Source of the DNA: an uncultured Alphaproteobacteria bacterium
GTDB lineage: Bacteria > Pseudomonadota > Alphaproteobacteria > RF32 > CAG-239
NCBI GenBank assembly: GCA_949297145.1
Contig: CASFQO010000011.1
Span: 62,001 to 126,000, forward strand
Direction of reading: 5' to 3'
Length of the DNA stretch: 64,000 nucleotides
Positions within the stretch are counted from its first letter, which is position 1. Each line of letters opens with the position of its first letter. Shown piece by piece: positions 413-63,777 of the stretch. Made by a program: the position numbers and the translations under genes. Below the pieces are notes generated by a model. The model saw nothing but the letters and a program-made list of their open reading frames with translations. It was not told where the DNA came from and ran no database searches.

Positions 413-1411
413 TCAAATCAGCCAACAACCTTTTTCACGGCTATTCGCCTTGATTGTCTTTCCGGAAGGTGTAAAATAAACACTGTCATCACCACAAATC
501 AGCCGCACCAAGTTATTATCCACACTTTCGAGCAACATTTTCTCTTGTTTTTCCGTCTCTGCCTCAACAACACAACCATCAGCCGTCTGGCAAACAGATA
601 AATGACGCATTTTACCACGAAGCAATTTATTCTCAGAAGAATACAAAGACCACTCTTCGCCAAACTTCAGCAAATACACTCCGTTAGCAAACCAAAAGGC
701 CTCCTGAAATGCCTGTGCAATCACATTCAACTGCTCATCAAACAGCGCAAGATTTCCCTCATCTGTAGAATAAATAGCCACACTTCCGTCAGAATATTCC
801 GTTTTGACAATATCACTTTTTGAACAAACAAAACATCCATTAAAAAGACATTCAAATTTCTGAAAAGTACCAGCAATTTTATCAACCTTTGTAGAAAAAG
901 CTACGCGATGCTGCAATAAGACAGACGCATCCGGCCGCACAAAAGCAACCACAAAATCATTCGAATTTTTATTTTGAAAGACTTTCAAATCTTCATCAAA
1001 ATAAGAAATTAAAATATACTCTATCAAAGAGCGATGAGGACTAACTTGAAACACTCTCCACGTATCTCTATCATCACACAAAGCAATAACATTCCCGCTA
1101 ACACAAACTTTTTTTGCTTCACATTTAACATAGCAAAGAACATCATTTCCCGATGCATCAACCAGATACCAATAAGGAGAATTTTTCTTTTTGAAGAGTT
1201 TAAATCCCCACGGAAACAGCAAAACATCTTCCAAATCTGCTTCCAACACATGACCGGCATTGTCATATAAAACAACACCATCGGCATATCGCACGGCAAA
1301 AGAACCGTCATCAAATTTTCTCGCACCAAGTGCCGAACCGTAACTAGTTAAATTGTTACAAAGAATAACCTCTTTAGGCTCCAAAAATTGGGGTACAAAT
1401 TTTGTTTCCAT
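413..1411 (-). CDS. Orphan protein, 332 residues, tandem paralogue of the partial gene
   Basis: A complete gene with ATG at 1411, followed by an intrinsic terminator. There is no signal peptide or transmembrane segment, so it is probably cytoplasmic. The sequence is rich in short beta-strand units separated by DDGS, YDNAG, DASGND and TDEGN turns, as in repeat proteins of the WG or beta-propeller kind, but the units are too diverged for me to assign a family. About ten cysteines are scattered through it. The partial gene at 1-261 is clearly a paralogue over its first 75 residues or so. Function unknown; the tandem copy with its own promoter suggests a locally expanding family. Confidence 0.85.
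   Translation of the reverse strand: METKFVPQFLEPKEVILCNNLTSYGSALGARKFDDGSFAVRYADGVVLYDNAGHVLEADLEDVLLFPWGFKLFKKKNSPYWYLVDASGNDVLCYVKCEAKKVCVSGNVIALCDDRDTWRVFQVSPHRSLIEYILISYFDEDLKVFQNKNSNDFVVAFVRPDASVLLQHRVAFSTKVDKIAGTFQKFECLFNGCFVCSKSDIVKTEYSDGSVAIYSTDEGNLALFDEQLNVIAQAFQEAFWFANGVYLLKFGEEWSLYSSENKLLRGKMRHLSVCQTADGCVVEAETEKQEKMLLESVDNNLVRLICGDDSVYFTPSGKTIKANSREKGCWLI
464..491 (-). promoter_or_regulatory. Sigma70-type promoter of the 332-residue orphan
   Basis: Minus strand: -35 TTGACT (486-491), 16 bp spacer, -10 TATATT (464-469). The -35 and the first half of the spacer match the promoter at 312-339. Confidence 0.65.
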
Positions 1412-1860: not shown

Positions 1861-2313
1861 TTAAGCGGCAGCAGCTTCAGAAGCATTTTGAGCAGCTTCA
1901 GCAGCAGCTTTTTCAGCCTTAACGCGTTCAATATCTTTGAAACCTTTGGCATTAACATCTCTGTCAACCAATTCGATAATTGCCATCGGAGCGCAGTCAC
2001 CATATCTGTAACCAGCTTTCAAAACGCGTGTATAACCACCGTTACGTTCTTTATAACGCTCAGCTAAAACAGAAAAGAGTTTAGCAACAACTTCATTATT
2101 GCGCAAGAAAGACAAAGCCAAACGACGAGAATTCAAATCACCTTTTTTAGCATAAGTAATCATGCTCTCGGCAAAAGTTCTTAATTCTTTAGCACGAGGA
2201 AGAGTAACAGTAATTTGTTCGTGAGTGAACAAAGCATTAGTTAAATTAGCAAATAACGCTCTTCTTTGGCTTTTCGGCATATTAAAGCGTCTGTGTGCAT
2301 CACCATGTCTCAT
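1861..2313 (-). CDS. rplQ: 50S ribosomal protein L17
   Basis: L17 is a structural protein of the large ribosomal subunit near the exit tunnel. The family start MRHGDAHRRFNMPKSQRRALF is plain, followed by LTNALFTHEQITVTLPRAKELR and the closing GDCAPMAIIELVDR. The reading frame is open for 34 more codons upstream, but ATG at 2313 with GGAAAGG eight bases before it gives the conserved N-terminus. The product is 150 residues, longer than the roughly 127 of E. coli because of an Ala/Glu-rich C-terminal tail (AAAEAAQNASEAAAA) common in alphaproteobacteria. It normally follows rpoA directly; here rpoA is about 49 kb away on the same strand, and rplQ is a one-gene unit between two terminators. Confidence 0.95.
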   Translation of the reverse strand: MRHGDAHRRFNMPKSQRRALFANLTNALFTHEQITVTLPRAKELRTFAESMITYAKKGDLNSRRLALSFLRNNEVVAKLFSVLAERYKERNGGYTRVLKAGYRYGDCAPMAIIELVDRDVNAKGFKDIERVKAEKAAAEAAQNASEAAAA

Positions 2314-2448: not shown

Positions 2449-2490
2449 AAAAAAGAGCCAAATTTCTGACGATTCTCAAAAATCTGGCTC
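2449..2490 (-). terminator. Intrinsic terminator between the 300-residue orphan and rplQ
   Basis: Minus-strand stem GAGCCA (2485-2490) / TGGCTC (2455-2460), extended by imperfect pairing inside, followed by six T. It implies that rplQ has its own promoter in the 135 bp downstream. Confidence 0.75.
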
Positions 2491-2549: not shown

Positions 2550-3452
2550 TCACCTTGTCAACCGGCGTTCCATCATAGCCTTGAGCGTAGCGGCATTAAC
2601 TTCCGTTCCTTTTTCCACCTCTTTTTCACCATCTTCAACGCTTTCCATGGTGTAGCCCTGTTTATCAACTTTTGCCTTCAGTGTATCTGTTCCATATTCG
2701 GTTGAAGTTTGTGCATTTAACTTCATCTCTCCATGACGAGACATCCGCACATCAAATTCGGAAATTTCTCCTTCATTTGCTCTGTCATCATATGTCGCAT
2801 GGACAGAAACAGCCCCACCGCGACCGACATTCATCGTTCCTTTTAAATGCCCCATATCTTCGCCCTCGGCCTTTATAGCCATTCTATTGCCGCTTTGCGA
2901 AAAGGCAAATTTCATATCATCGCCTTGAAGTTGAGCCTCCACACGTTGCCCCTTTTGAGCCACATCCAAAACAACACCGTCACTCTGAAAACGTCCGACA
3001 ACATTTCCGGTCCGTTCATCTTTTTGCATAACGCCGGTCAACTGACCATTTTCGTCATACAAAGCCGCACTGCTACGCATATTTCCTTGAGATGTTTGGA
3101 TTCGACTTCCATCTTGCCCGACAATTTCCATATTAAACGGTTTACCGTCAAACCCGCCGCTCAACGAATACTTATTGCCTTCCAACATATAATTAAATTT
3201 CTGTCCATCTGTTCTGAGCGTAGCTTTAACTTCTTTTAATTTATCCAAATCATACGTATCCAAAACACGCTGCACGCCATCACTCATGCCGGCACATTGC
3301 TCTTTTAATTCAGCCATAAGAGCCTGTCTTTGTGCTTCAGTCCAAGAGATAGTCGCTTTGTCTTCATGGGCACCCTCATTTGCTTGTACTTGCCCGGCAC
3401 CGGCCAAAGCAGCCCCCATCATCACAACTGTTTCAGCATTTACACCACTCAT
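2550..3452 (-). CDS. Orphan with shared leader, 300 residues
   Basis: Function unknown. Residues 1-25 (MSGVNAETVVMMGAALAGAG, then QVQAN) form a small-residue hydrophobic stretch ending in an AxA-like site, but without the basic residues of a normal signal peptide. The same leader, followed by the same (K/A)TISW(T/E)EAQ block at about residue 34, opens the next gene upstream (4561), although the remaining sequences differ. Residues 80-260 look like a repetitive beta-structure with many Gly-Asp-Gly turns (EGNKYSLSGGFDGKPFNMEI, DENGQLTG, QSDGVVLDV), perhaps a beta-helix or a series of hairpins. A GGAG site precedes the ATG. It lies 38 bp after the upstream gene and is probably cotranscribed with it. 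Confidence 0.85.
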   Translation of the reverse strand: MSGVNAETVVMMGAALAGAGQVQANEGAHEDKATISWTEAQRQALMAELKEQCAGMSDGVQRVLDTYDLDKLKEVKATLRTDGQKFNYMLEGNKYSLSGGFDGKPFNMEIVGQDGSRIQTSQGNMRSSAALYDENGQLTGVMQKDERTGNVVGRFQSDGVVLDVAQKGQRVEAQLQGDDMKFAFSQSGNRMAIKAEGEDMGHLKGTMNVGRGGAVSVHATYDDRANEGEISEFDVRMSRHGEMKLNAQTSTEYGTDTLKAKVDKQGYTMESVEDGEKEVEKGTEVNAATLKAMMERRLTR

Positions 3453-3490
3453 AGCTTTTCTCCATTTATTAACCTAATAATCACAATCCA

Positions 3491-4561
3491 CTATTCCCTA
3501 AAGGATTGCATTTTATTCAACATTGCCATATTAGCCACATTCAATTTTTCTGCCTGAGCTTGACGATTTTCATTTGCCAATTTCTGAGCTAATTCAGGAT
3601 ATTTATGCAACATCGGCAATTTCGCCCTTTCGCGACTTTCCTCGTTAGCATACTGAGGCTCTTTATCAATTCTTTGGCAATAATTTCTCAACTCTTCTAA
3701 TTTTAAATTTTCTTTATCTGCAGCAGAAAGTTTATCATCACGATCAATAGCGTCCATAACATTCATGGTTACATTTTGATCCACCCATCTTTTCCGCCCA
3801 AACATTTCAAGTTTCATTCTCTCTTCCACATTTTCGGGAGTAGCTTGCTTATTTGCTACCAACAAGTCGTTGCGAACATTTTTTTCAATAGTTTTCTCAT
3901 CATAAGCATCCTTAAAATGTTCTCTCATATAATCAGCAGCCACCATCGCCGAAGCATGGTCAAATTTTTCCATCGCATACTTTAAGGTCAAGAATGTCTG
4001 AGTATTAACAGATTCACTAATATTAGGATTAACTTTCTTAGCAAATTCCCCCTGTGCGATAATTCTATCAGCTGGAGCTAATTGTTGATATTTTTCAGTT
4101 TTCATAAAAGCTTTTATCGGAGATTCTTTATCTTCAATACTCCTTAAAGTTTCATCATTACCTGCCAGATAATAAGGTTGATTATACTCACGACGAAATT
4201 TATGAGTAACAAGAATTTGCTCTTCTTCACTTAATTTCTTATACGCATCGGAACTCTGAAAACGTGCAACTCTTTCCTCATTTTGCTTATAAATATTTTG
4301 ATTAACGCTGTCCATATATTGATTAACAACAGCCTCTTGAGCTTTAGTCGGGAATAAGGCATAAACCATCCCTTGTCCTTCAACAAAATAAGCCAACGTC
4401 TGCCCATCAGCATCTTTTATTGGTTCACCTTTAGACATCCCTTGAGCTTCTTCCCAAGAAATTGTTTTATTATCTTGAGTTTGCGCCTGAGCATCAACAT
4501 TGGCACCGGCAGCCAATGCCGCACCTGCCATCACAACTGTTTCTACATTTATCCCGCTCAT
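3491..4561 (-). CDS. Orphan with shared leader, 356 residues
   Basis: Function unknown. The N-terminus MSGINVETVVMAGAALAAGA followed by NVDAQAQ and KTISWEEAQ matches that of the 300-residue neighbour, while the body does not. Residues about 70-350 are strongly helical and charged, with many Glu-Arg-Lys helices (NEERVARFQSSDAYKKLSEE, ENVEERMKLEMFGRKRW) and no cysteine-rich or catalytic signature that I can see. Two genes with one leader but different bodies suggest that the leader is a common targeting or assembly signal. The first gene of a short leftward operon; a good promoter sits 32 bp upstream of its ATG. Confidence 0.85.
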   Translation of the reverse strand: MSGINVETVVMAGAALAAGANVDAQAQTQDNKTISWEEAQGMSKGEPIKDADGQTLAYFVEGQGMVYALFPTKAQEAVVNQYMDSVNQNIYKQNEERVARFQSSDAYKKLSEEEQILVTHKFRREYNQPYYLAGNDETLRSIEDKESPIKAFMKTEKYQQLAPADRIIAQGEFAKKVNPNISESVNTQTFLTLKYAMEKFDHASAMVAADYMREHFKDAYDEKTIEKNVRNDLLVANKQATPENVEERMKLEMFGRKRWVDQNVTMNVMDAIDRDDKLSAADKENLKLEELRNYCQRIDKEPQYANEESRERAKLPMLHKYPELAQKLANENRQAQAEKLNVANMAMLNKMQSFRE

Positions 4562-4592
4562 AACACGTCTCCACTAATTTTCCATTACTCAC

Positions 4593-4621
4593 AGTATAAC
4601 ACAAACCGCCCCATATAGCAA
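4593..4621 (-). promoter_or_regulatory. Promoter of the leader-sharing orphan pair
   Basis: Minus strand: -35 TTGCTA (4616-4621), 17 bp spacer, -10 TATACT (4593-4598), just after the end of the U32 gene. Confidence 0.65.
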
Positions 4622-4627
4622 GCATAA

Positions 4628-6022
4628 TCAGCGTTGGCAAAGCGTCTGAAATTCATTTAATTTATGCTGATACATCTCTTCATTTTCCCCTTTAAGAGGC
4701 TGATGTTTACGAGCAATCACATACTGCGGCAAAAGTTTTTTAATTTCATGAATATCTCTGCCCCACATTTCCGGACGAATACGAATTTTCTTTCCCTGAC
4801 CGGCAGAAACTTTTGGTGTGATTTCACCAGTTTCCGCATCTTCAAAATTCTGTAAAACCAAATCAAAATTCTCTAAACCGTGAGGGATTAAAAATTGAAT
4901 TGTTTCCCCCGCTTCAATATAATTTCTCAATTCAAAAATGGCATCATCACCCTGCCATTCAACAATAGAGCCCGCAAACAACCATTCTCCCAACGTGCGC
5001 GTATATTCATAATTTTGGCTGATATTGGTAATTTTACCGTCATGAAAGCCCAAACAATAACCGCGATTTTGCAGCGTCATCAATTCCGGCATATATTTAT
5101 CACTCGACCAAGTTTTAGGATTTGCGTAATAATCATCAATAGCCTGACGATAAGCTCTGGCAACCACACCGGCGTAATATTCGGTCTTATTACGTCCTTC
5201 CACTTTGAGGGAATCCATACCGATTCGCAACAAATCATTTAAGCGCGGCATCAAACACATATCTTTTGAATTAAGCATATAGCTGCCATGCTCGTCTTCA
5301 ACCACTTCATAATATTCTCCCGGACGAAAATCTTCTTCCAACAAATACTCAAAGTTATTTTTATTTTCGTCATTAATAACGAGTTCGCGAATAGTGCCGT
5401 CTTTCATCCGAAGATGCAGTTTATAGTGCCATCTGCAGCAATGTGCACATTTCCCCTTATTGGCGCTTCTGTCGGCTAAGAAGTTCGAGATTAAACACCG
5501 TCCCGAATAAGACATGCACATCGCCCCATGCATAAAGCACTCTAATTCAATATCCGGACATTGTTTGCGAATTTCTGCCATTTCCGCAAAAGTAACTTCC
5601 CGTCCGAGCACACAAAGTTTCGCCCCCATGGATTGCCAAAACTTAACCGTTTGCGCCGAACAAATATTAGCTTGGGTTGAAACAAAACGATTAAGTTCCG
5701 GAGCATTTTCTTTTAAGTAATAAAAGACGCCGGGATCTGCCACGAGCACCCCATCCGGATGCAATCTTTTAAGTGTTTCTACAAATTGCGGCAATTTTTC
5801 CGCCTCTTCATTATGGATATAAAGATTAAGCGTCAAATAAATTTTTTTACCCATCTCATGAACGATTCGAATCCCCTCTTCCAATTCTTCCAAAGAAAAT
5901 TTGGATTGCGTTCTGAGACTCATATCTGGCGTTCCGGCATACACGGCATCTGCCCCATAAAGAAGCGCTGTTTTCAATTTAACCAAAGAACCGGCCGGCA
6001 ACAAAAGTTCCGCATTATGCAT
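4628..6022 (-). CDS. trhP: Peptidase U32 family, TrhP/YegQ-like tRNA U34 hydroxylase
   Basis: U32 proteins of the YegQ/TrhP type start the 5-hydroxylation of uridine 34 in tRNAs on the route to (m)cmo5U, using prephenate and an iron-sulfur cluster. The opening ELLLPAGSLVKLKTALLYGADAVYAG and the block CFMHGAMCMSYSGRCLISNF are family signatures; the second holds conserved cysteines, with two more in CAHCCRWHY. The C-terminal third (from about residue 350) is the beta-barrel domain. I chose the ATG at 6022, with GAAGGA seven bases before it, over the GTG five codons upstream. At 464 residues it matches YegQ (453). It follows the DUF3108 gene closely. Other U32 members modify 23S rRNA (RlhA), so the exact substrate is inferred. 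Confidence 0.8.
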   Translation of the reverse strand: MHNAELLLPAGSLVKLKTALLYGADAVYAGTPDMSLRTQSKFSLEELEEGIRIVHEMGKKIYLTLNLYIHNEEAEKLPQFVETLKRLHPDGVLVADPGVFYYLKENAPELNRFVSTQANICSAQTVKFWQSMGAKLCVLGREVTFAEMAEIRKQCPDIELECFMHGAMCMSYSGRCLISNFLADRSANKGKCAHCCRWHYKLHLRMKDGTIRELVINDENKNNFEYLLEEDFRPGEYYEVVEDEHGSYMLNSKDMCLMPRLNDLLRIGMDSLKVEGRNKTEYYAGVVARAYRQAIDDYYANPKTWSSDKYMPELMTLQNRGYCLGFHDGKITNISQNYEYTRTLGEWLFAGSIVEWQGDDAIFELRNYIEAGETIQFLIPHGLENFDLVLQNFEDAETGEITPKVSAGQGKKIRIRPEMWGRDIHEIKKLLPQYVIARKHQPLKGENEEMYQHKLNEFQTLCQR

Positions 6023-6042: not shown

Positions 6043-6831
6043 TTACTTAATTTTTAAACTCGTTGGTACTACTTTTAGCGCGCCGAGAGGCGTGGAGTCA
6101 ATCCTTATTTCAAGCACGTAAGGCAATTTTGCCTTTTGTTCAACTCCAATCCAAAAATAAATCGGTGTTTCCGCACTGACATCCCATAAAATATTATCAT
6201 TATTGTCTTTCAGGTTTTCTATATAAAGAGAGCATTTATAAGAATTTTCGGTACGTTTAAGCAAATCAAAATATCGATTCTCCGTTCCTTCGTCTTGAGC
6301 AATAACCCGATAATGTTTTTTACCGTCATAAACTTCTCTGACCAAAGCGCAACTGCGCGTCTGATTAAAATTACCGATTAACTCTGCAAAAATAGTTTGC
6401 AAATCGGCCGCATCTGCCGTTTTAGGCACATCTTTAATCGGAACGACATTTTTCTTTGCATCTTTAGTAGAGATTCGCTGATAAGCATATCCATTTTCAT
6501 CATAAAAGATTTTCTTGGTTCGAACATGATTACGTGATTTTGTATACGTCTGATAAATTTCAGGCAAAATATCCCTAACTTTTCCCTTGGTTTCAAAAAC
6601 ACTACCTTTGCTGGAATAACGCCCTACAAAAGGATATATAGTATCAAAAAAGTTAGCGGTTTTCACTTCTGCGCTAATCTGATACTCAGCAGGCGTCGCC
6701 TTATAATCAAGCACTATTGTAGCCGCATCAAAAACCCCAATACTAACGTCCATTTTCTGTTCAAACCCATTAGCCTGAACCTGACCGATGAACCCACAAA
6801 AAACAAACCAAAATAAAAATATTTTTTTCAC
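6043..6831 (-). CDS. DUF3108 exported protein
   Basis: A 262-residue protein with a clear signal peptide (MKKIFLFWFVFCGFIGQVQA, cleavage after residue 20) and a body typical of the DUF3108 family: ATIVLDYKATPAEYQISAEV, TIYPFVGRYSSKG and the closing ISAETPIYFWIGVE-like strand ending in LGALKVVPTSLKIK. DUF3108 proteins are periplasmic or outer-membrane associated beta proteins of unknown role, widespread in proteobacteria. It is the first gene of a leftward pair with the U32 hydroxylase and is divergent from ddl, with about 80 bp between the two starts. Confidence 0.8.
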   Translation of the reverse strand: MKKIFLFWFVFCGFIGQVQANGFEQKMDVSIGVFDAATIVLDYKATPAEYQISAEVKTANFFDTIYPFVGRYSSKGSVFETKGKVRDILPEIYQTYTKSRNHVRTKKIFYDENGYAYQRISTKDAKKNVVPIKDVPKTADAADLQTIFAELIGNFNQTRSCALVREVYDGKKHYRVIAQDEGTENRYFDLLKRTENSYKCSLYIENLKDNNDNILWDVSAETPIYFWIGVEQKAKLPYVLEIRIDSTPLGALKVVPTSLKIK

Positions 6832-43433: not shown

Positions 43434-44969
43434 ATGAAAACATATACCCTAGACCAATTAATTAATTTGGATTCTGGCGGAATAGACATCGTACAAAAAA
43501 ATAACGACGACGATGCCCAAAATTTTTTGGAAGAAAAAAAGGAAGAACTTTCATTTTTAAGTCCCCGAGAGTATGAGCAACTCAAAGAATACTATACAGA
43601 CACGATGGAAAAATATCGCCTGATATATGAGGCCATCGTTTCAGGTTTTTCCACTTCGAACAACCCTGGTTTTCCGGAATATATTTATAACATCAATCTC
43701 AAAGACGGTAGCATAGAAAGAGACAAAAACGGCCGTTTAATTAGCTATTCAACAGAAGTTTTAGCGCCCTGCTCAACTTCAATGCTGCACTACATCAACC
43801 ATGAATGTAATGATGTCTTTGTTATCATCCCGCCGATTAAAAGCGAGCAGCGTACTGCTGAAAAGATGATTTCGGAGTGTCTTCGCGAATATGATGCGGA
43901 AAAAGAAAACAATCTGAATAAATTTACAACAGACCCAACTTTTAATCCGGAAGATGAGCCGGAATTGCCTTTCCCAACAACAAATGATAAAAAGCAAACT
44001 TCATCTTGCCAAACAGCCTTGCGGCTCAACGATTTATTTGATGAAGAAAAGACCTCCGACGCTCTCATCAACATCGCTAAGAAAGATATTATTCCGCACG
44101 ATATTTACCGCTTATCCATCACCTCCAAATACCCAAATGATTTGGAAGAGCTGATAAAAGAATTGGAAGCCAAATTTCCACCGTACATTTCTTTTGAAAA
44201 AGGCGAGCGAAACCTTTATAAAAAGAATTTGAGTGAAAATACGCGTAACTATTTTGATATCAAAAAGACCGCTCGAATTACCATTCCCGAAACCGGAAAA
44301 ACATTTTTCATTGAATTTCAATTCAAACAAACATTAATGTTTTTCGCCCACCTTCGTTCGCACGCTGCATATGAAGAGTATCGGATATTAGAAGCCAAAT
44401 ATCAGGCCTTAAAAGATGCAGAACAAAAAAATAAAAACAAGAACGTCACCACACGCCAAAAATTACAGCAACTCAAAAAACAGCGTGATGAAAAAAAAGA
44501 ATTATGTTTACAAATCCACCGCAACGCCGTCCATCAAAGCAATTTATACTTGATGCATAAAATTCAGTGGCTGGATGACAATGCCAGAGGCCTTCATCGC
44601 GTGCCGGACTATACGGATGACAAATACAAACATTCGGTAGATACCATTAAGAAGAACTATATCGTAGAAAGCTATGAACCTTTTGACGGAGCCACCGCTT
44701 TTACAACAACGCCGGATGAATATCTGAATAAATCTTTTTATTTAAAGATGATAGGCATTCTTCCGGAAAGTTTTGATGAACTAGGCAAAAATGCAAAAGA
44801 CCATGTCATGAAAGCATGGAACACCTTAACACCGGCCGATTTAAAAGATTTTACGCGTATTAGCAAAACAGCCGTCAAATACCAAGACGTCATCAAAGAC
44901 ATTCAAAAAAAGCGCAAGATGATGGATTCCGTGACACTCTTAAACACTTTTGCCCAAAACGAACGATAA
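43434..44969 (+). CDS. Orphan with possible RelA/SpoT-like nucleotidyltransferase fold, 511 residues
   Basis: Function unknown. Charged, mostly helical, no signal peptide. One stretch stands out: residues about 221-325 read HDIYRLSITSKYPNDLEELI, then NYFDIKKTARITIPETGKTF, FIEFQFKQTLMFFAHLRSHA and YEEYRILEA. This order (Asp-x-x-Arg strand, Tyr-x-Asp-Ile strand, E-x-Q strand, then helix with His and YEEYR) follows the nucleotide-binding fold of RelA/SpoT synthetase-like domains in their small and effector versions. I have not been able to check it by alignment. The N-terminal 200 residues and the Lys-rich coiled coil at about 335-370 have no counterpart that I know. A canonical Ser/Lys-rich G-loop is not visible, so activity is uncertain. 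Confidence 0.75.
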   Translation: MKTYTLDQLINLDSGGIDIVQKNNDDDAQNFLEEKKEELSFLSPREYEQLKEYYTDTMEKYRLIYEAIVSGFSTSNNPGFPEYIYNINLKDGSIERDKNGRLISYSTEVLAPCSTSMLHYINHECNDVFVIIPPIKSEQRTAEKMISECLREYDAEKENNLNKFTTDPTFNPEDEPELPFPTTNDKKQTSSCQTALRLNDLFDEEKTSDALINIAKKDIIPHDIYRLSITSKYPNDLEELIKELEAKFPPYISFEKGERNLYKKNLSENTRNYFDIKKTARITIPETGKTFFIEFQFKQTLMFFAHLRSHAAYEEYRILEAKYQALKDAEQKNKNKNVTTRQKLQQLKKQRDEKKELCLQIHRNAVHQSNLYLMHKIQWLDDNARGLHRVPDYTDDKYKHSVDTIKKNYIVESYEPFDGATAFTTTPDEYLNKSFYLKMIGILPESFDELGKNAKDHVMKAWNTLTPADLKDFTRISKTAVKYQDVIKDIQKKRKMMDSVTLLNTFAQNER

Positions 44970-52939: not shown

Positions 52940-53308
52940 TTATTTCTTCTTGTTAGCCACAGTCTTGCGTTTACCTTTACGGGTTCTCGCATTTTGTTTA
53001 GTACTCTGACCACGAACAGGCAAACCTTTACGATGGCGAAGGCCGCGGTAGCAACCCAAATCCATCAAGCGCTTAATGTTTACAGCAACTTCACGACGAA
53101 GTTCACCTTCAACGAGGTAGTCCTTATCAATTACATCACGAACTTTTGCAATATCTTCGTCAGACAATTCCTGCACACGACGATCACCAGCAACGCCCGC
53201 TTTTGCACAGATAACCTGTGCTGTTTCTCTTCCGATACCATAGATAGAGGTCAATGCGATCTCCAATTTCTTGGCAGAAGGAATATTTACACCAGCTATA
53301 CGAGCCAA
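52940..53308 (-). CDS. rpsM: 30S ribosomal protein S13, TTG start
   Basis: S13 contacts tRNA in the head of the small subunit. The family start [20 protein letters not shown] follows directly on TTG at 53308, with GGAGAG eight bases before it, giving [10 protein letters not shown]. The upstream frame is open for another 20 codons but has no sequence like S13. The rest ([57 protein letters not shown]) fits. 122 residues. Its own consensus promoter lies upstream. Confidence 0.95.
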
Positions 53309-53379
53309 ATTAACTCTCCATTTATTTAAACAATTAAACCATTCAAAAAGTTGATCACCACTCTTCAAAATTAATGCGG

Positions 53380-53407
53380 ATTATAGGGCATAATTTCTTA
53401 GAGTCAA
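53380..53407 (-). promoter_or_regulatory. Promoter of rpsM-rpsK-rpoA
   Basis: Minus strand: -35 TTGACT (53402-53407), 16 bp spacer, perfect -10 TATAAT (53380-53385), about 70 bp before the TTG start. It splits the operon from secY-adk. Confidence 0.8.
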
Positions 53408-53460
53408 CACTTCTTTTAAAAAAAATACAAAAAAAATACACATTTTTAATAAATTATTAA

Positions 53461-53490
53461 TTTAAAGAAGCCGAATCGCTAAGCTTCGGC
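53461..53490 (-). terminator. Weak hairpin at the adk stop
   Basis: Minus-strand stem GCCGAA (53485-53490) / TTCGGC (53470-53475), the adk stop codon inside the loop, then TTCTTTAAATT. A weak T run means it may only attenuate. Confidence 0.45.
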
Positions 53491-54150
53491 AATCCCTAAA
53501 ACTTTTTCTATTTTGGCAGCAACGGCCTCAATCGTACCCGTCCCGTCAACACATCTAAGCAGCCCCTCTTTTTCAAAAAAAGGAATTGTCGGATAGGTAT
53601 AAGCTCTAAAATTAACCAAACGATTATGAACAGTCGTCCGATTATCATCTTGCCGACGTGAAAATTCAACTCCGCCGCATTCATCACATACGCCATAAAC
53701 CCTTGGTTTTAAGAACTTATCATGATAGCCGCGTCCACATTTCATGCAAGCGTAGCGCCCCAAAATACGTTCCATAATAATTTCATCAGGAACTTGAATC
53801 TCAATAACGGCATCTAATTTCTGCTTTTTTGCTTTGAGCATTTCTTCCAAAATTTCAGCCTGCACCAAAGTTCTTGGGAAACCATCCAGAAGGAAACCAT
53901 TTTTACAATCTTCTTGTCCGATTCTATCCTCAACCATGCGGATAATCAAATCATCAGATGCAAACCCACCATTATCCAGAGCTTCTTTAAGTTCCAACCC
54001 CAGTGGAGTTTCTTTTTTAATCTCAGCCCGAAGCATTTCTCCTGTAGACAAATGGCAAATCCCCGTTTTCTCACACAAAATGCGAGCCTGGGTGCCTTTT
54101 CCGCACCCGGGCGCGCCGGTAAAAACAACAAACAAATGTTTATTCGTCAT
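53479..54150 (-). CDS. adk: Adenylate kinase with Cys4 zinc lid
   Basis: Adk interconverts AMP, ADP and ATP. P-loop GAPGCGKGTQARIL near residue 13, AMP site LSTGEMLRAEIKKETPLG, the NGFLLDGFPRT strand, and a long LID domain with two Cys-x2-Cys pairs (CMKCG at about 135 and CDECG at about 156), which bind a structural metal. The lid-closing RRQDDN and the closing YTYPTIPFF are normal. 223 residues. Starts four bp after secY, the common secY-adk coupling. Confidence 0.96.
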   Translation of the reverse strand: MTNKHLFVVFTGAPGCGKGTQARILCEKTGICHLSTGEMLRAEIKKETPLGLELKEALDNGGFASDDLIIRMVEDRIGQEDCKNGFLLDGFPRTLVQAEILEEMLKAKKQKLDAVIEIQVPDEIIMERILGRYACMKCGRGYHDKFLKPRVYGVCDECGGVEFSRRQDDNRTTVHNRLVNFRAYTYPTIPFFEKEGLLRCVDGTGTIEAVAAKIEKVLGIAEA

Positions 54151-54153
54151 TTT

Positions 54154-55503
54154 CTATTTTTTCCTTTTGCTAATCAGTGAAGCCTTTTTCAAAAGACCTT
54201 CATACTGATAAGCAATCAAGTGAGATTGAACTTGTGTAATAAAGTCCAACGTAACTTGAACCACGATAAGCAAGGTTGTACCGCCCAAGACAAACGGGAC
54301 AGACAACTTTGTAATCAAGATTTCCGGTAAGATACATAAAGCTGCCAAGTAAAAAGCACCCAAAACAGTCAATCTTGTCACAACGTAGTCAAGATATTCA
54401 GCCGTATTTTTACCCGGACGAATACCGGCAATAAAACCACCGTGTTTTTTCAAATTTTCAGCTGTTTCTTCCGGATTAACCACAACCGCGGTATAGAAAA
54501 AGGCAAAGAACACTATCAAGAAGGCATACAAAGCCAAATACAACGGTTGCCCGTGGTTAAGATATCTGCTCAAGGTTTGAACCCATTCCGGCCCATTATT
54601 AGACCAGATATTTGCAATTGTAATCGGCAACAACAGCAAAGCACTGGCAAAAATCGGCGGAATAACACCTGTCGGGTTAACCTTCAACGGCAAGTGAGAG
54701 CTTTCAGCAGAAGTCATACGCAGACCAACTTGACGCTTTGGATATTGTACCAAAATTTTTCTTTGCGCCATTTCCACTTTAAGGATGATAAATACCAACG
54801 CAATGCTCATCACAAACAAGCCCAAAATAACGAGCGGAGACATAGAACCGATACGTCCCAATTCCAAAGTTTGAGCAATTGCAGAAGGAATATTGGCAAT
54901 AATACCGACCGTAATAATCAAAGACGAACCGTTACCAACACCGCGAGAAGTAATTTGCTCTCCCAACCATACAATAAACATTGTACCGCCGGTTAAAGAA
55001 ACGATTGTAGAAAAGATAAATGTATACGGTGCAATCACCACAGCGCTGGATCCATCAGCATTAGCCAAGCTCATCAAGCCAACAGCAATACCATAGCCTT
55101 GAATAATTGTAATCAACACTGTCAAAAGTTTGGTATAGTGCATCATTTTGCGGTGACCGGCCTCTCCTTCTTTTTTAAGAGCAGCCAAAGACGGTACGAT
55201 AGACTGTCCGAGTTGCAAGATAATGGAAGCTGAAATGTACGGCATAATGTTGAGAGCAAAAATCGTCATACGCTCCAAAGCACCACCGGAAAACATATTA
55301 AACATACCCAAAATACCATTGGAATGTCTGGCAAAAATTTCAGCCAACACGCGTGAATCAATTCCCGGAAGAGGAATAAACGTTCCCAAACGAAAAACAA
55401 TTAAAGCCAATACCGTAAACAACAGACGCTTTTTCAAATCCGTAGCTTTACTAAAGACGGATGCATCCATATTGGCGGCCATTTTCTCTGCTAATGATAC
55501 CAT
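54154..55503 (-). CDS. secY: Preprotein translocase subunit SecY
   Basis: The central pore of the Sec translocon, ten transmembrane helices, 449 residues. Blocks FTVLALIVFRLGTFIPLPGI (helix 1 start), PYISASIILQLGQSIVPSLA, GEQITSRGVGNGSSLIITVG, AQRKILVQYPKRQVGLRMTS and the ribosome-facing loop GGFIAGIRPGKNTAEYLDYV are the standard signature. In most bacteria rplO precedes it; here no ribosomal gene lies upstream, only an intergenic stretch and a divergent exported orphan, so the spc operon is broken. Confidence 0.97.
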   Translation of the reverse strand: MVSLAEKMAANMDASVFSKATDLKKRLLFTVLALIVFRLGTFIPLPGIDSRVLAEIFARHSNGILGMFNMFSGGALERMTIFALNIMPYISASIILQLGQSIVPSLAALKKEGEAGHRKMMHYTKLLTVLITIIQGYGIAVGLMSLANADGSSAVVIAPYTFIFSTIVSLTGGTMFIVWLGEQITSRGVGNGSSLIITVGIIANIPSAIAQTLELGRIGSMSPLVILGLFVMSIALVFIILKVEMAQRKILVQYPKRQVGLRMTSAESSHLPLKVNPTGVIPPIFASALLLLPITIANIWSNNGPEWVQTLSRYLNHGQPLYLALYAFLIVFFAFFYTAVVVNPEETAENLKKHGGFIAGIRPGKNTAEYLDYVVTRLTVLGAFYLAALCILPEILITKLSVPFVLGGTTLLIVVQVTLDFITQVQSHLIAYQYEGLLKKASLISKRKK

Positions 55504-55773: not shown

Positions 55774-57231
55774 ATGTCAAAAGCAAAATACATAGCCGGC
55801 GCAGGAATTGTCGCCGCCGGAGCTGCACTTTCAAGCCTTCCGCCGCAAGGACAAGTTCAAGCAGAACCATTGGATTCAACAAGACATGAAATAATTATAT
55901 CCGATGCCCCATCGCATGAACAAATAGCAGCTTTAAACGCACAAAAAAAAATAACGCCTAGAACAGCGCAAAAAGTATATCATCGTTTTGAAGAAATCCC
56001 TGCCATTTCTGATGCAGAAGCCAGTGCATATAATCGTAATGACTACACTTATATTGTTAACGCCGAAGAATACCAAAAAACTGGAAAAATAGAATTAAAG
56101 CGCGTTCTCAAAGATGAAGTAACCAAAGCTAATGCTCTAAGCTTAGTATACCGTAGCGAATGTCAAACATATAATCCAAAACCAACCGAAGACCAATTGG
56201 CAAAATACGTCATCGATTTACGCATTATGAGCAAAACCGGTATAACCAAAGGCCCGTCACAAATGGACGATAACGCCATAAGCTCTTTTATAAAATATAT
56301 GGCCGCCAATCCACAAACAAGGCAATATGTCCTCCCTTTACTAAAAGCAACAAAAGGTAGTGTAGCGGAAGCTGCTCAAAAACTTGAACATAAATTTTTC
56401 GATGAAAATGGCGACCTACGTCCTATGGACGAACGTGATGCCATCTTGCATGGAGATGCCTATAAAAGCCTCTACCTCAACGATAATGCATGGAAAACCG
56501 TCGCATCAGCAAAGCTAAAGAAATTTATCTCTGCCACAGAAGCAGAAAAAACCAAAAAAGTTGGCAGACCGGTTCATTTGAGCAATACCACAAAAAATTA
56601 TCTCTGCCTGACAGAGCTTTTCCCGTCTGAAGAATTATTGATACAACAAATTGAAGATTACAATTTAGCGTTCTATCAATTAGGACGTCCGGGAAAAACC
56701 AAACATGTAACAGCAGCCTTAGCTCGTAGTATGAATCTAAAAGATAAGGATGGGAATTTAGATGCAACTCGTCTACCACCTTTTGCCGTTGCGGCAGCCA
56801 TCAGCAGCATCAACTGGAAAGGTAATGGGAAACAAGCTCTTAGAACAGCACAAACCTTAAGAAGTGAATTAGCTCACAGTTCCAACCCCAACAAGACACT
56901 TCGTGAAAGTGTCAAGACATGGGTAACAGGCAAGAGCAAAAGATACGGTGTAGATGAAATGTACGAGTTAAACATCCTCACCCCGGATATTATTCGCCAA
57001 TATACCGAGCTAGAGTTATCCGGTTCAAAAAATTTAGCCCACAACTACCAAACAGCCGTTGAAATAGCTGAAAGCAAAGCACGAATTGCCCACCACAAAC
57101 AAACGAGACAAGCAACCCCGCACACTGCTCAGCAATCAACACAAAACAACGAGCAAGAAAATCTTTTGCAAAAAGGCAAAACCTTACTGCTCACGGCTGC
57201 GGATTTTATACGAGGCAAAAGCCGAGACTAA
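55774..57231 (+). CDS. Exported orphan, 485 residues
   Basis: A Lys-containing N-terminus and a hydrophobic, glycine-rich segment (KYIAGAGIVAAGAALSSLPP) end near QVQA, like a signal peptide (cleavage after about 30). The body is charged and helical, with a long stretch of domains such as LKDEVTKANALSLVYRSECQ, GPSQMDDNAISSFIKYMAAN and NPQTRQYVLPLLKATKGSVA and a low-complexity tail (HKQTRQATPHTAQQSTQNNE). The segment KGPSQMDDNAISSF... recalls lysozyme-like or transglycosylase folds only weakly. No family assigned. AAAGAGG precedes the ATG by 14 bp, further than usual. Confidence 0.75.
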   Translation: MSKAKYIAGAGIVAAGAALSSLPPQGQVQAEPLDSTRHEIIISDAPSHEQIAALNAQKKITPRTAQKVYHRFEEIPAISDAEASAYNRNDYTYIVNAEEYQKTGKIELKRVLKDEVTKANALSLVYRSECQTYNPKPTEDQLAKYVIDLRIMSKTGITKGPSQMDDNAISSFIKYMAANPQTRQYVLPLLKATKGSVAEAAQKLEHKFFDENGDLRPMDERDAILHGDAYKSLYLNDNAWKTVASAKLKKFISATEAEKTKKVGRPVHLSNTTKNYLCLTELFPSEELLIQQIEDYNLAFYQLGRPGKTKHVTAALARSMNLKDKDGNLDATRLPPFAVAAAISSINWKGNGKQALRTAQTLRSELAHSSNPNKTLRESVKTWVTGKSKRYGVDEMYELNILTPDIIRQYTELELSGSKNLAHNYQTAVEIAESKARIAHHKQTRQATPHTAQQSTQNNEQENLLQKGKTLLLTAADFIRGKSRD

Positions 57232-63330: not shown

Positions 63331-63777
63331 ATGTCAAAACGCAAAACAATCAACAATCACCTCCAAATTGCCAGTCCGGAAGAAAAAGAAATATTCTTAT
63401 CTACCCTCTGCACGCTAGCTCAAATTGACGGCAAAATAAAACCGGAAGAGATGGATTTTATTGAATCTCTCGGAAAGACCATGCATCTGGAATTAAAGCC
63501 GCAATTTTTCACCTGCTCACCTAAAAATTGCCTATCTAAAATAGGCTGCATCAAAGACCGCCGCCTAAGTTTGGAGCTCATCAAAGATATGCTGACCATA
63601 GCCTACACAGATAATGACTTTTCCGATTCGGAGGGACATTTTATCTGCGACGTCGGGGATGCATTGAAAATAGAGCCGCAAAAAATCGGAGAAATCAGCT
63701 CTTGGATTATAGACCACATCATCTGGTTAGAGCAAGAAGCCTTAATTTTTGAAGAAACAGACCGCAAAGGAGAATAG
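63331..63777 (+). CDS. TerB-like helical protein, 148 residues
   Basis: All-helical. The segment EKEIFLSTLCTLAQIDGKIK, then PEEMDFIESLGKTM, with later MLTIAYTDNDFSDSEGHFIC, is the TerB plan: two homologous helix bundles, each with an Asp-Gly-x-Ile/acidic loop that may bind a metal. TerB-like proteins appear in tellurite-resistance and stress-response contexts and as stand-alone proteins. Two cysteines, CSPKNC, lie in a central loop. AAAGGAG precedes the ATG. Coupled to the next gene with only a 2 bp gap. Confidence 0.75.
   Translation: MSKRKTINNHLQIASPEEKEIFLSTLCTLAQIDGKIKPEEMDFIESLGKTMHLELKPQFFTCSPKNCLSKIGCIKDRRLSLELIKDMLTIAYTDNDFSDSEGHFICDVGDALKIEPQKIGEISSWIIDHIIWLEQEALIFEETDRKGE

What the first reader, a model, noticed from the sequence alone, without database searches (positions are those of the whole stretch)
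2550..4561. Two adjacent proteins share a non-basic, AxA-ending leader but different bodies
MSG(V/I)N(A/V)ETVVMxGAALA..., ending in an AxA-like site and followed by (K/A)TISW(T/E)EAQ, opens both proteins. There is no Arg or Lys before the hydrophobic part, so it is not a normal Sec or Tat signal, yet it is short, small-residue rich and conserved while the rest of the proteins is unrelated. A lineage-specific targeting or self-assembly tag is a possibility. A looser relative (GAGIVAAGAAL...QVQA) begins the protein at 55774, this one with a Lys-containing n-region.
Basis: partly seen in the sequence, partly recalled or inferred. Interest (0 to 1): 0.7.

Follow-up and report, generated by a model that had tools for sequence, protein, structure and literature searches.

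The report
Genus-specific conserved leader, atypical signal peptide
Two neighbouring bacterial proteins with different bodies share a short conserved start that looks like an export signal lacking the usual positive charge, found so far in one genus only and apparently copied from one gene to its neighbour.

Summary
A (2550-3452, -) and B (3491-4561, -) share a 40-residue start (24 of 41 columns identical) without Lys/Arg before the hydrophobic part; GGAGA lies 6 nt before each ATG. Among 58 held genomes the leader occurs on A in 9 of 19 genus members, on B in 3, on a third, unrelated protein in 1, and in 0 of 39 genomes outside the genus (E<=0.1). A sits between rplQ and a U32-like peptidase; G012 has a homologue there without the leader, so it was gained or lost within the genus. 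B is absent from the closest relative and is 98-100% identical to G003's B while 100-base blocks around it are 60-97%: B moved recently as a ~1.2-kb piece, and its 5' end looks like a copy of A's. Copying explains why these two share the leader, but not its conservation: across 8 genomes it averages 73% identity against 51% for A's body, whereas a neighbouring ordinary signal peptide averages 44% against 78% for its mature part. I read it as a Sec-like export or membrane signal with an unusual, constrained neutral-to-acidic n-region; export is inferred, not shown. The 55774 protein has an ordinary Lys-containing signal and is not a demonstrable relative.

The parts
2550..3452 (-). gene A, 300 aa: leader, fast linker, helical N-domain, 18 predicted strands, C-terminal helix tail
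   Evidence: ORF; orthologues; AlphaFold model mean pLDDT 72, residues 1-43 and 49-69 below 50
3381..3452 (-). A leader, residues 1-24 MSGVNAETVVMMGAALAGAGQVQA
3330..3353 (-). TISWTEAQ of A, shared with B
3491..4561 (-). gene B, 356 aa, mostly helical body without known relatives; clear orthologues in G003 and G017 of 58 genomes (a further G018 match at E 0.069 was not inspected)
   Evidence: model mean pLDDT 60
4490..4561 (-). B leader, residues 1-24 MSGINVETVVMAGAALAAGANVDA
4442..4465 (-). TISWEEAQ of B
3460..4636 (-). approximate exchanged piece carrying B, 98-100% identical to G003 per 100-base block and absent from G006 (ends approximate)
4593..4621 (-). promoter-like site before B (TTGCTA-17-TATACT); 6 such sites in the region against 5.7 expected, so no evidence by itself, but a similar stretch precedes A in relatives without B
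2455..2490 (-). terminator-like hairpin with T-run after A (5 such sites against 1.3 expected)

Best explanation
The leader is one N-terminal module gained (or lost in the others) within one alphaproteobacterial genus, in front of the fast-evolving gene A. Its 5' end (upstream stretch, ribosome site, leader, TISW) was copied in front of another body to make B (indicated by synteny and DNA comparison; order of events inferred), and B then moved between species as a ~1.2-kb piece, most simply by homologous recombination (inferred from the identity profile). Function, inferred: an N-terminal export or membrane-targeting signal of Sec anatomy (short polar start, 10-12 residue hydrophobic Ala/Gly/Val core, VxA/AxA site) whose n-region is neutral-to-acidic and carries a conserved N-x-E-T/S, so that it would be recognised or timed differently from ordinary signal peptides.
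For: Core hydropathy 2.01-2.30 in 11 of 12 distinct leaders (1.82 in G008A), level with the Lys-containing signal of the 55774 protein (2.07); A ranks 24th and B 21st of 58 window gene models (script-made models). Ala at 24 with V/A/S at 22 in 10 of 12 distinct leaders. D in G008 has the motif with two Lys before the core on an unrelated body (E 5.6e-4 with an A-only model; among 14 pattern hits in 19 genomes against 0 control hits). Leaderless homologue G012X at the same place. The constraint is on the protein: in the 10 pairs of the five closest A orthologues the leader has dN 0-0.15 with dS 0.44-1.62 or not computable. In A the linker after residue 24 is the fastest part, as expected after a cleavage site.
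Against: No Lys/Arg before the core in 10 of 12 distinct leaders and Glu7 in 12 of 12; zero or negative n-region charge lowers Sec transport (PMC5875014, passages). The leader evolves more slowly than the body, whereas signal peptides had 2-7 times the Ka/Ks of mature parts in an Actinobacteria study (PMC3729583, passages). The cleavage-site Ala is lost in 2 of 9 A orthologues (G008, G014). A homologue does without the leader (G012). B's linker is not fast (15 of 16 identical). Hydropathy does not separate cleanly: a window protein at 63331-63777 that I take for cytosolic (TerB-like, own reading) scores 2.08. AlphaFold leaves the leader unresolved. No signal-peptide predictor or experiment was available.
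Confidence: 0.5

Rival explanations
1. The leader is not an export signal but a partner-binding or self-assembly helix (capped at Asn5, small-residue face G13/A14/A15) that recruits A and B to the same complex.
For: Sequence-specific conservation incl. N5 and E7 (12 of 12) and T8 (11 of 12), leader above body in 26 of 28 pairs and above the N-domain in 21 of 28; helix 6-20 in A and 6-17 in B in the models, at low confidence.
Against: pLDDT about 30 over the leader; Lys-bearing relative D and the VxA site look like a signal peptide; fast linker after residue 24 in A.
Confidence: 0.22
2. Mere duplication relic: A and B share the leader only because B's 5' end was copied from A, with no special function.
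For: Adjacent genes; own genome has only these two at E<=10; upstream stretches and ribosome sites alike, B absent from G006.
Against: Protein-level constraint in 9 A orthologues (for 8 of them) and in B (G000B/G017B 23 of 24, dS 0.67); a third carrier D elsewhere.
Confidence: 0.13
3. The proteins are substrates of the genus's type IV secretion system; the conserved C-terminal tail addresses them, and the leader is an add-on for periplasmic pick-up or for action in a host cell.
For: VirB4 family in 16 of 19 and PF02534 (VirD4-type) in 18 of 19 genus genomes; A's tail is kept when the middle is lost (G008A, 173 aa) or replaced (G011A, 719 aa); a VirB2-like gene (PF04956, E 1.1e-9) lies at this locus in G013.
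Against: No effector signal was tested; A's tail model does not recognise B, D or the other tails (B E 75); PF02534 also rings in 5 of 14 control genomes, so the machinery may serve DNA transfer only; G012 shows no VirB4 match.
Confidence: 0.1

Closest known systems
Sec signal peptide / signal peptidase I substrates
   Same: Position, 24-residue length, hydrophobic Ala/Gly/Val core, VxA/AxA site before a polar linker
   Different: No basic residue before the core in 10 of 12 leaders, invariant Glu7, motif-level conservation higher than that of the body
OspA-like single-layer beta-sheet (Borrelia outer surface protein A)
   Same: A's predicted strands; Foldseek best hits 1osp_O E 6e-4 and 2i5z E 9e-4, probability 1.00
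   Different: TM-scores 0.18-0.36 and 8-15% identity in the OspA rows listed; no lipobox Cys; likeness of repeat geometry, not evidence of homology
S-layer protein chains 9rpl, 7qld, 7qle (sequence profile match)
   Same: Weak profile match of A's beta part, E 0.003-0.007
   Different: Borderline E-values on a repetitive beta stretch; no membership claimed

Membership tests
Sec signal peptide | positively charged n-region | tested here: not met
   No K/R before the core in 10 of 12 distinct leaders; A and B have net -1 from Glu7. G006 A has an in-frame ATG 24 nt upstream that would add K, R, R, but the GGAGA site favours the MSG start
Sec signal peptide | hydrophobic core | tested here: inconclusive
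   2.06 (A) and 2.27 (B), level with the 55774 signal (2.07), but a TerB-like protein (own reading) scores 2.08
Sec signal peptide | small residues at -3 and -1 | tested here: met
   10 of 12 distinct leaders, both window proteins; lost in G008A and G014A
Sec signal peptide | export and cleavage in vivo | not testable with these tools
   needs fusion or mass spectrometry
Tat signal peptide | twin arginine before the core | tested here: not met
   no Arg before the core in any of 12
Lipoprotein signal peptide | Cys after the core | tested here: not met
   no Cys in the leader region of any of 12
T4SS substrate | secretion by the VirD4-type coupling protein | not testable with these tools
   machinery families present in the genus; signal not tested
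Known protein family (Pfam, NCBIfam, PHROGs, PADLOC) | match over the curated cut-off or clearly significant | tested here: not met
   A, B and 55774: best Pfam E 0.022, none over cut-off; NCBIfam none at E<=1; PHROGs best E 0.013; PADLOC none at E<=0.1

The most novel reading that the evidence does not exclude
A genus-specific address tag: a charge-free N-terminal leader (with N-x-E-T) and, on A, a conserved C-terminal tail bracket exchangeable, hypervariable bodies at one hot-spot locus, routing them by a path other than ordinary Sec recognition (a dedicated receptor, or two-step Sec plus type IV secretion) to the surface or a host cell.
Probability: 0.12. Interest if true: 0.65.

Novelty: new variant of a known kind. 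Interest (0 to 1): 0.36.

Why it matters
Signal peptides are usually defined by physics, not sequence, and evolve fast. A natural, sequence-conserved, charge-free leader that has been copied onto unrelated bodies would be a clean test of whether the positive n-region can be replaced by a specific motif, and would mark a set of surface or host-contact proteins in an uncultured alphaproteobacterial genus that carries type IV secretion genes.

Tried and rejected
Alternative start codons giving a basic n-region: in the window the open frames upstream read 'VNKWRKA' (A) and 'WRRV' (B), but both V codons are GTT and W-R is the ribosome site TGGAGA itself. In G006 A an in-frame ATG 24 nt upstream exists (MENKRRSA-MSG); in B of G000 the corresponding ATG is followed by a stop, so I keep the MSG start, but for G006 the longer form is not excluded. 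D too has an in-frame ATG, 6 nt upstream.

Phage or plasmid origin: A in phages no match, B in plasmids no match, A and B in viral contigs none confirmed of 38 and 50 pattern stretches. B body as a diverged A body: an A-body model does not report B at E<=100, but does report leaderless G012X (E 1e-7) and weakly G005X1 (E 0.09); hhalign extends past leader plus TISW by about 24 columns only. A's tail shared with B: the two B tails rank 3rd and 4th of 67 with E 75-76, i.e. not shown. Leader relatives in the 55774 protein and in the metallopeptidase-like M (HExxH, own reading) of G006 and G009: E 3.4, 4.6 and 150, only the core/cleavage part.

Wider look with the 12-row model at E<=3: 20 of 39 genomes had a match, 10 of the 20 outside the genus, at E 0.05 or worse. 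Of the 13 outside loci that I translated, 2 are signal peptides of other proteins (DctP-like, LolA-like), 2 are DnaK-like GVNPDEVVAMGAAIQ, and 9 are neither (names are my reading); the weaker outside matches without a locus were not read. DnaK as source of the leader: not matched in the own genome at E<=3; taken as chance likeness. B fold search: no hit at E<=0.001, best E 0.42. Of the two structure models only A's beta part is usable.

Full report
What is there. On the minus strand the window holds A (2550-3452, 300 aa) and B (3491-4561, 356 aa) between rplQ (1861-2313) and a U32-type peptidase (about 4628-6022), then a DUF3108-like protein (6043-6831), with ddl, miaA and mreB beyond on the plus strand (these names are my reading of the sequences). 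Residues 1-41 align with 24 identical columns. Neither protein, nor the one at 55774, has a Pfam match over its cut-off, an NCBIfam match at E<=1, a PHROGs match better than E 0.013 or a PADLOC match at E<=0.1.

Where the leader occurs. The two-row model at E<=0.1 hit 10 of 58 genomes; one of these, G002 (E 0.036), is a stretch of another, ankyrin-like protein (own reading), leaving 9, all in the own genus (9 of 19 genus genomes; 0 of 39 others). A DNA pattern for M-x-x-[IV/M]-N-x-E-[T/S-like]-... over 19 genus genomes gave 14 hits, control 0: 9 A, 3 B, 1 D, and one with an in-frame stop. D (G008, L024 1433-2869) has a 478-aa protein whose body is found in 1 of 19 genomes. A scan of 84,980 species genomes with the A alignment gave 36 pattern stretches, 8 confirmed, all 8 titled 'uncultured Alphaproteobacteria bacterium'; the other 28 were not inspected.

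History. A tree of 17 genus genomes from five marker proteins (incomplete for several) puts the 9 leader carriers on one side of a split with local support 0.952 and the 8 non-carriers on the other. I read the rplQ locus of 8 of the 10 non-carriers (G004 and G007 not read). G012 has a 613-aa homologue of A that starts MTDISEDKKKLIAEIKAQ, about where A's TISW stretch lies (blastp to A E 3.5e-13, residue 42 of A to residue 8). G001 has a leaderless 604-aa protein that shares one domain with G011's A (E 3.4e-7). G005, G013 and G010 have other proteins there. G002 and G018 show no open frame of 90 aa or more apart from one antisense to rplQ in G018, G016 one of 104 aa on the opposite strand. So gene content at this locus varies greatly, and the leader was most simply gained or lost once.

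Transfer of B. In G000 the eleven 100-base blocks 4600-3501 are 98-100% identical to G003, while the 40 aligned blocks outside are 60-97% (26 of 40 in 80-93%); the nearest relative G006 lacks B and aligns straight through from 4512 to 3470. The stretch before B (TATACT ... ATGGAAAAT ... GGAGA) resembles the stretch before A in G006, which has no B, more than the stretch before A in G000 (judged by eye). Hence B sits behind the old 5' end and A has a second one.

Constraint. Over 8 genomes and 28 pairs (not independent; G011 left out) the leader averages 73% identity, A's N-domain 64%, A's body 51%; leader above body in 26 of 28, above N-domain in 21 of 28. The DUF3108-like protein averages 44% in its signal peptide and 78% in the mature part; signal above mature in 0 of 28. 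Two more controls are mixed: the 55774 protein has signal dN 0.104 against mature 0.134, M has 0.261 against 0.185 (one pair each), so a signal peptide slightly slower than its mature part does occur in this genus. Leader dS in the five closest A orthologues is 0.44-1.62 or not computable, so the constraint is on the protein. G008A has drifted most (15 of 24 to G000A).

Body and tail. A's model shows helices at 37-83 (largely low confidence), 18 strands from 85 to 282 and a C-terminal helix, with an OspA-like geometry at low TM-score. Orthologues run from 166 to 719 aa; N-domain and tail are kept while the middle changes, except that G014A's tail does not align.

Mechanism. Shown: distribution in the genomes searched, synteny, ribosome sites, constraint, near-identity of the B piece. 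Inferred: that the leader exports. For: length, core hydropathy, VxA site, Lys-bearing D, A's fast linker. Against: charge, conservation, leaderless homologue, two orthologues without a good site. I give 0.5 to a Sec-like but atypical signal, 0.22 to a binding or assembly helix, 0.13 to a relic, 0.1 to a type IV secretion role, the rest to causes not thought of.

Literature. From passages only: PMC5875014 on n-region charge and PMC3729583 on fast signal-peptide evolution. Other papers were seen only as listings with the starts of abstracts. None listed concerns this leader, but those searches used general terms, so novelty in print is not established.

Noticed in passing
window 2550-3452, 43434-44969; L024, L046, L048, L097, L098, L102, L103: Orphan proteins of this genus often end in Arg (A, D, M, G001X, G005X1, G005X2, G012X, G013X, window 43434-44969 ending NER; B and 55774 do not). 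5 of 56 window ORFs of 120 aa or more end in R, 2 of them such orphans; in relatives 17 of 135, of which 3 are U32 orthologues. Possible C-terminal signal; noticed post hoc.
   Followed up: partly
window 3460-4636: Near-identity of the B piece between two species whose surrounding 100-base blocks are 60-97% identical: recent transfer.
   Followed up: yes
L097 2224-2592 (-): A VirB2/TrbC-like gene lies at this locus in G013 (PF04956 E 1.1e-9); VirB4 family in 16 of 19 and PF02534 in 18 of 19 genus genomes.
   Followed up: partly
L046 1936-3480 (+), L048, L047: A 515-aa HExxH (metallopeptidase-like, own reading) protein with a Lys-rich signal ending AQAQ; in G011 the frame is split into two ORFs.
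   Followed up: no
window 1861-2313 and 52940-55503: rplQ lies about 50 kb from rpsM, adk and secY (names are my reading) instead of in one ribosomal block.
   Followed up: no
L030 and L044: The leader model weakly matches the GVNPDEVVAMGAAIQ stretch of DnaK-like proteins (E 0.39 and 0.58); probably chance likeness.
   Followed up: partly
window 413-1411; L015 7993-8820 and 8979-9980: METKFV.../MDTKFV... proteins occur as adjacent divergent copies beside rplQ in several relatives; no Pfam match at E<=0.1 for the window copy.
   Followed up: no
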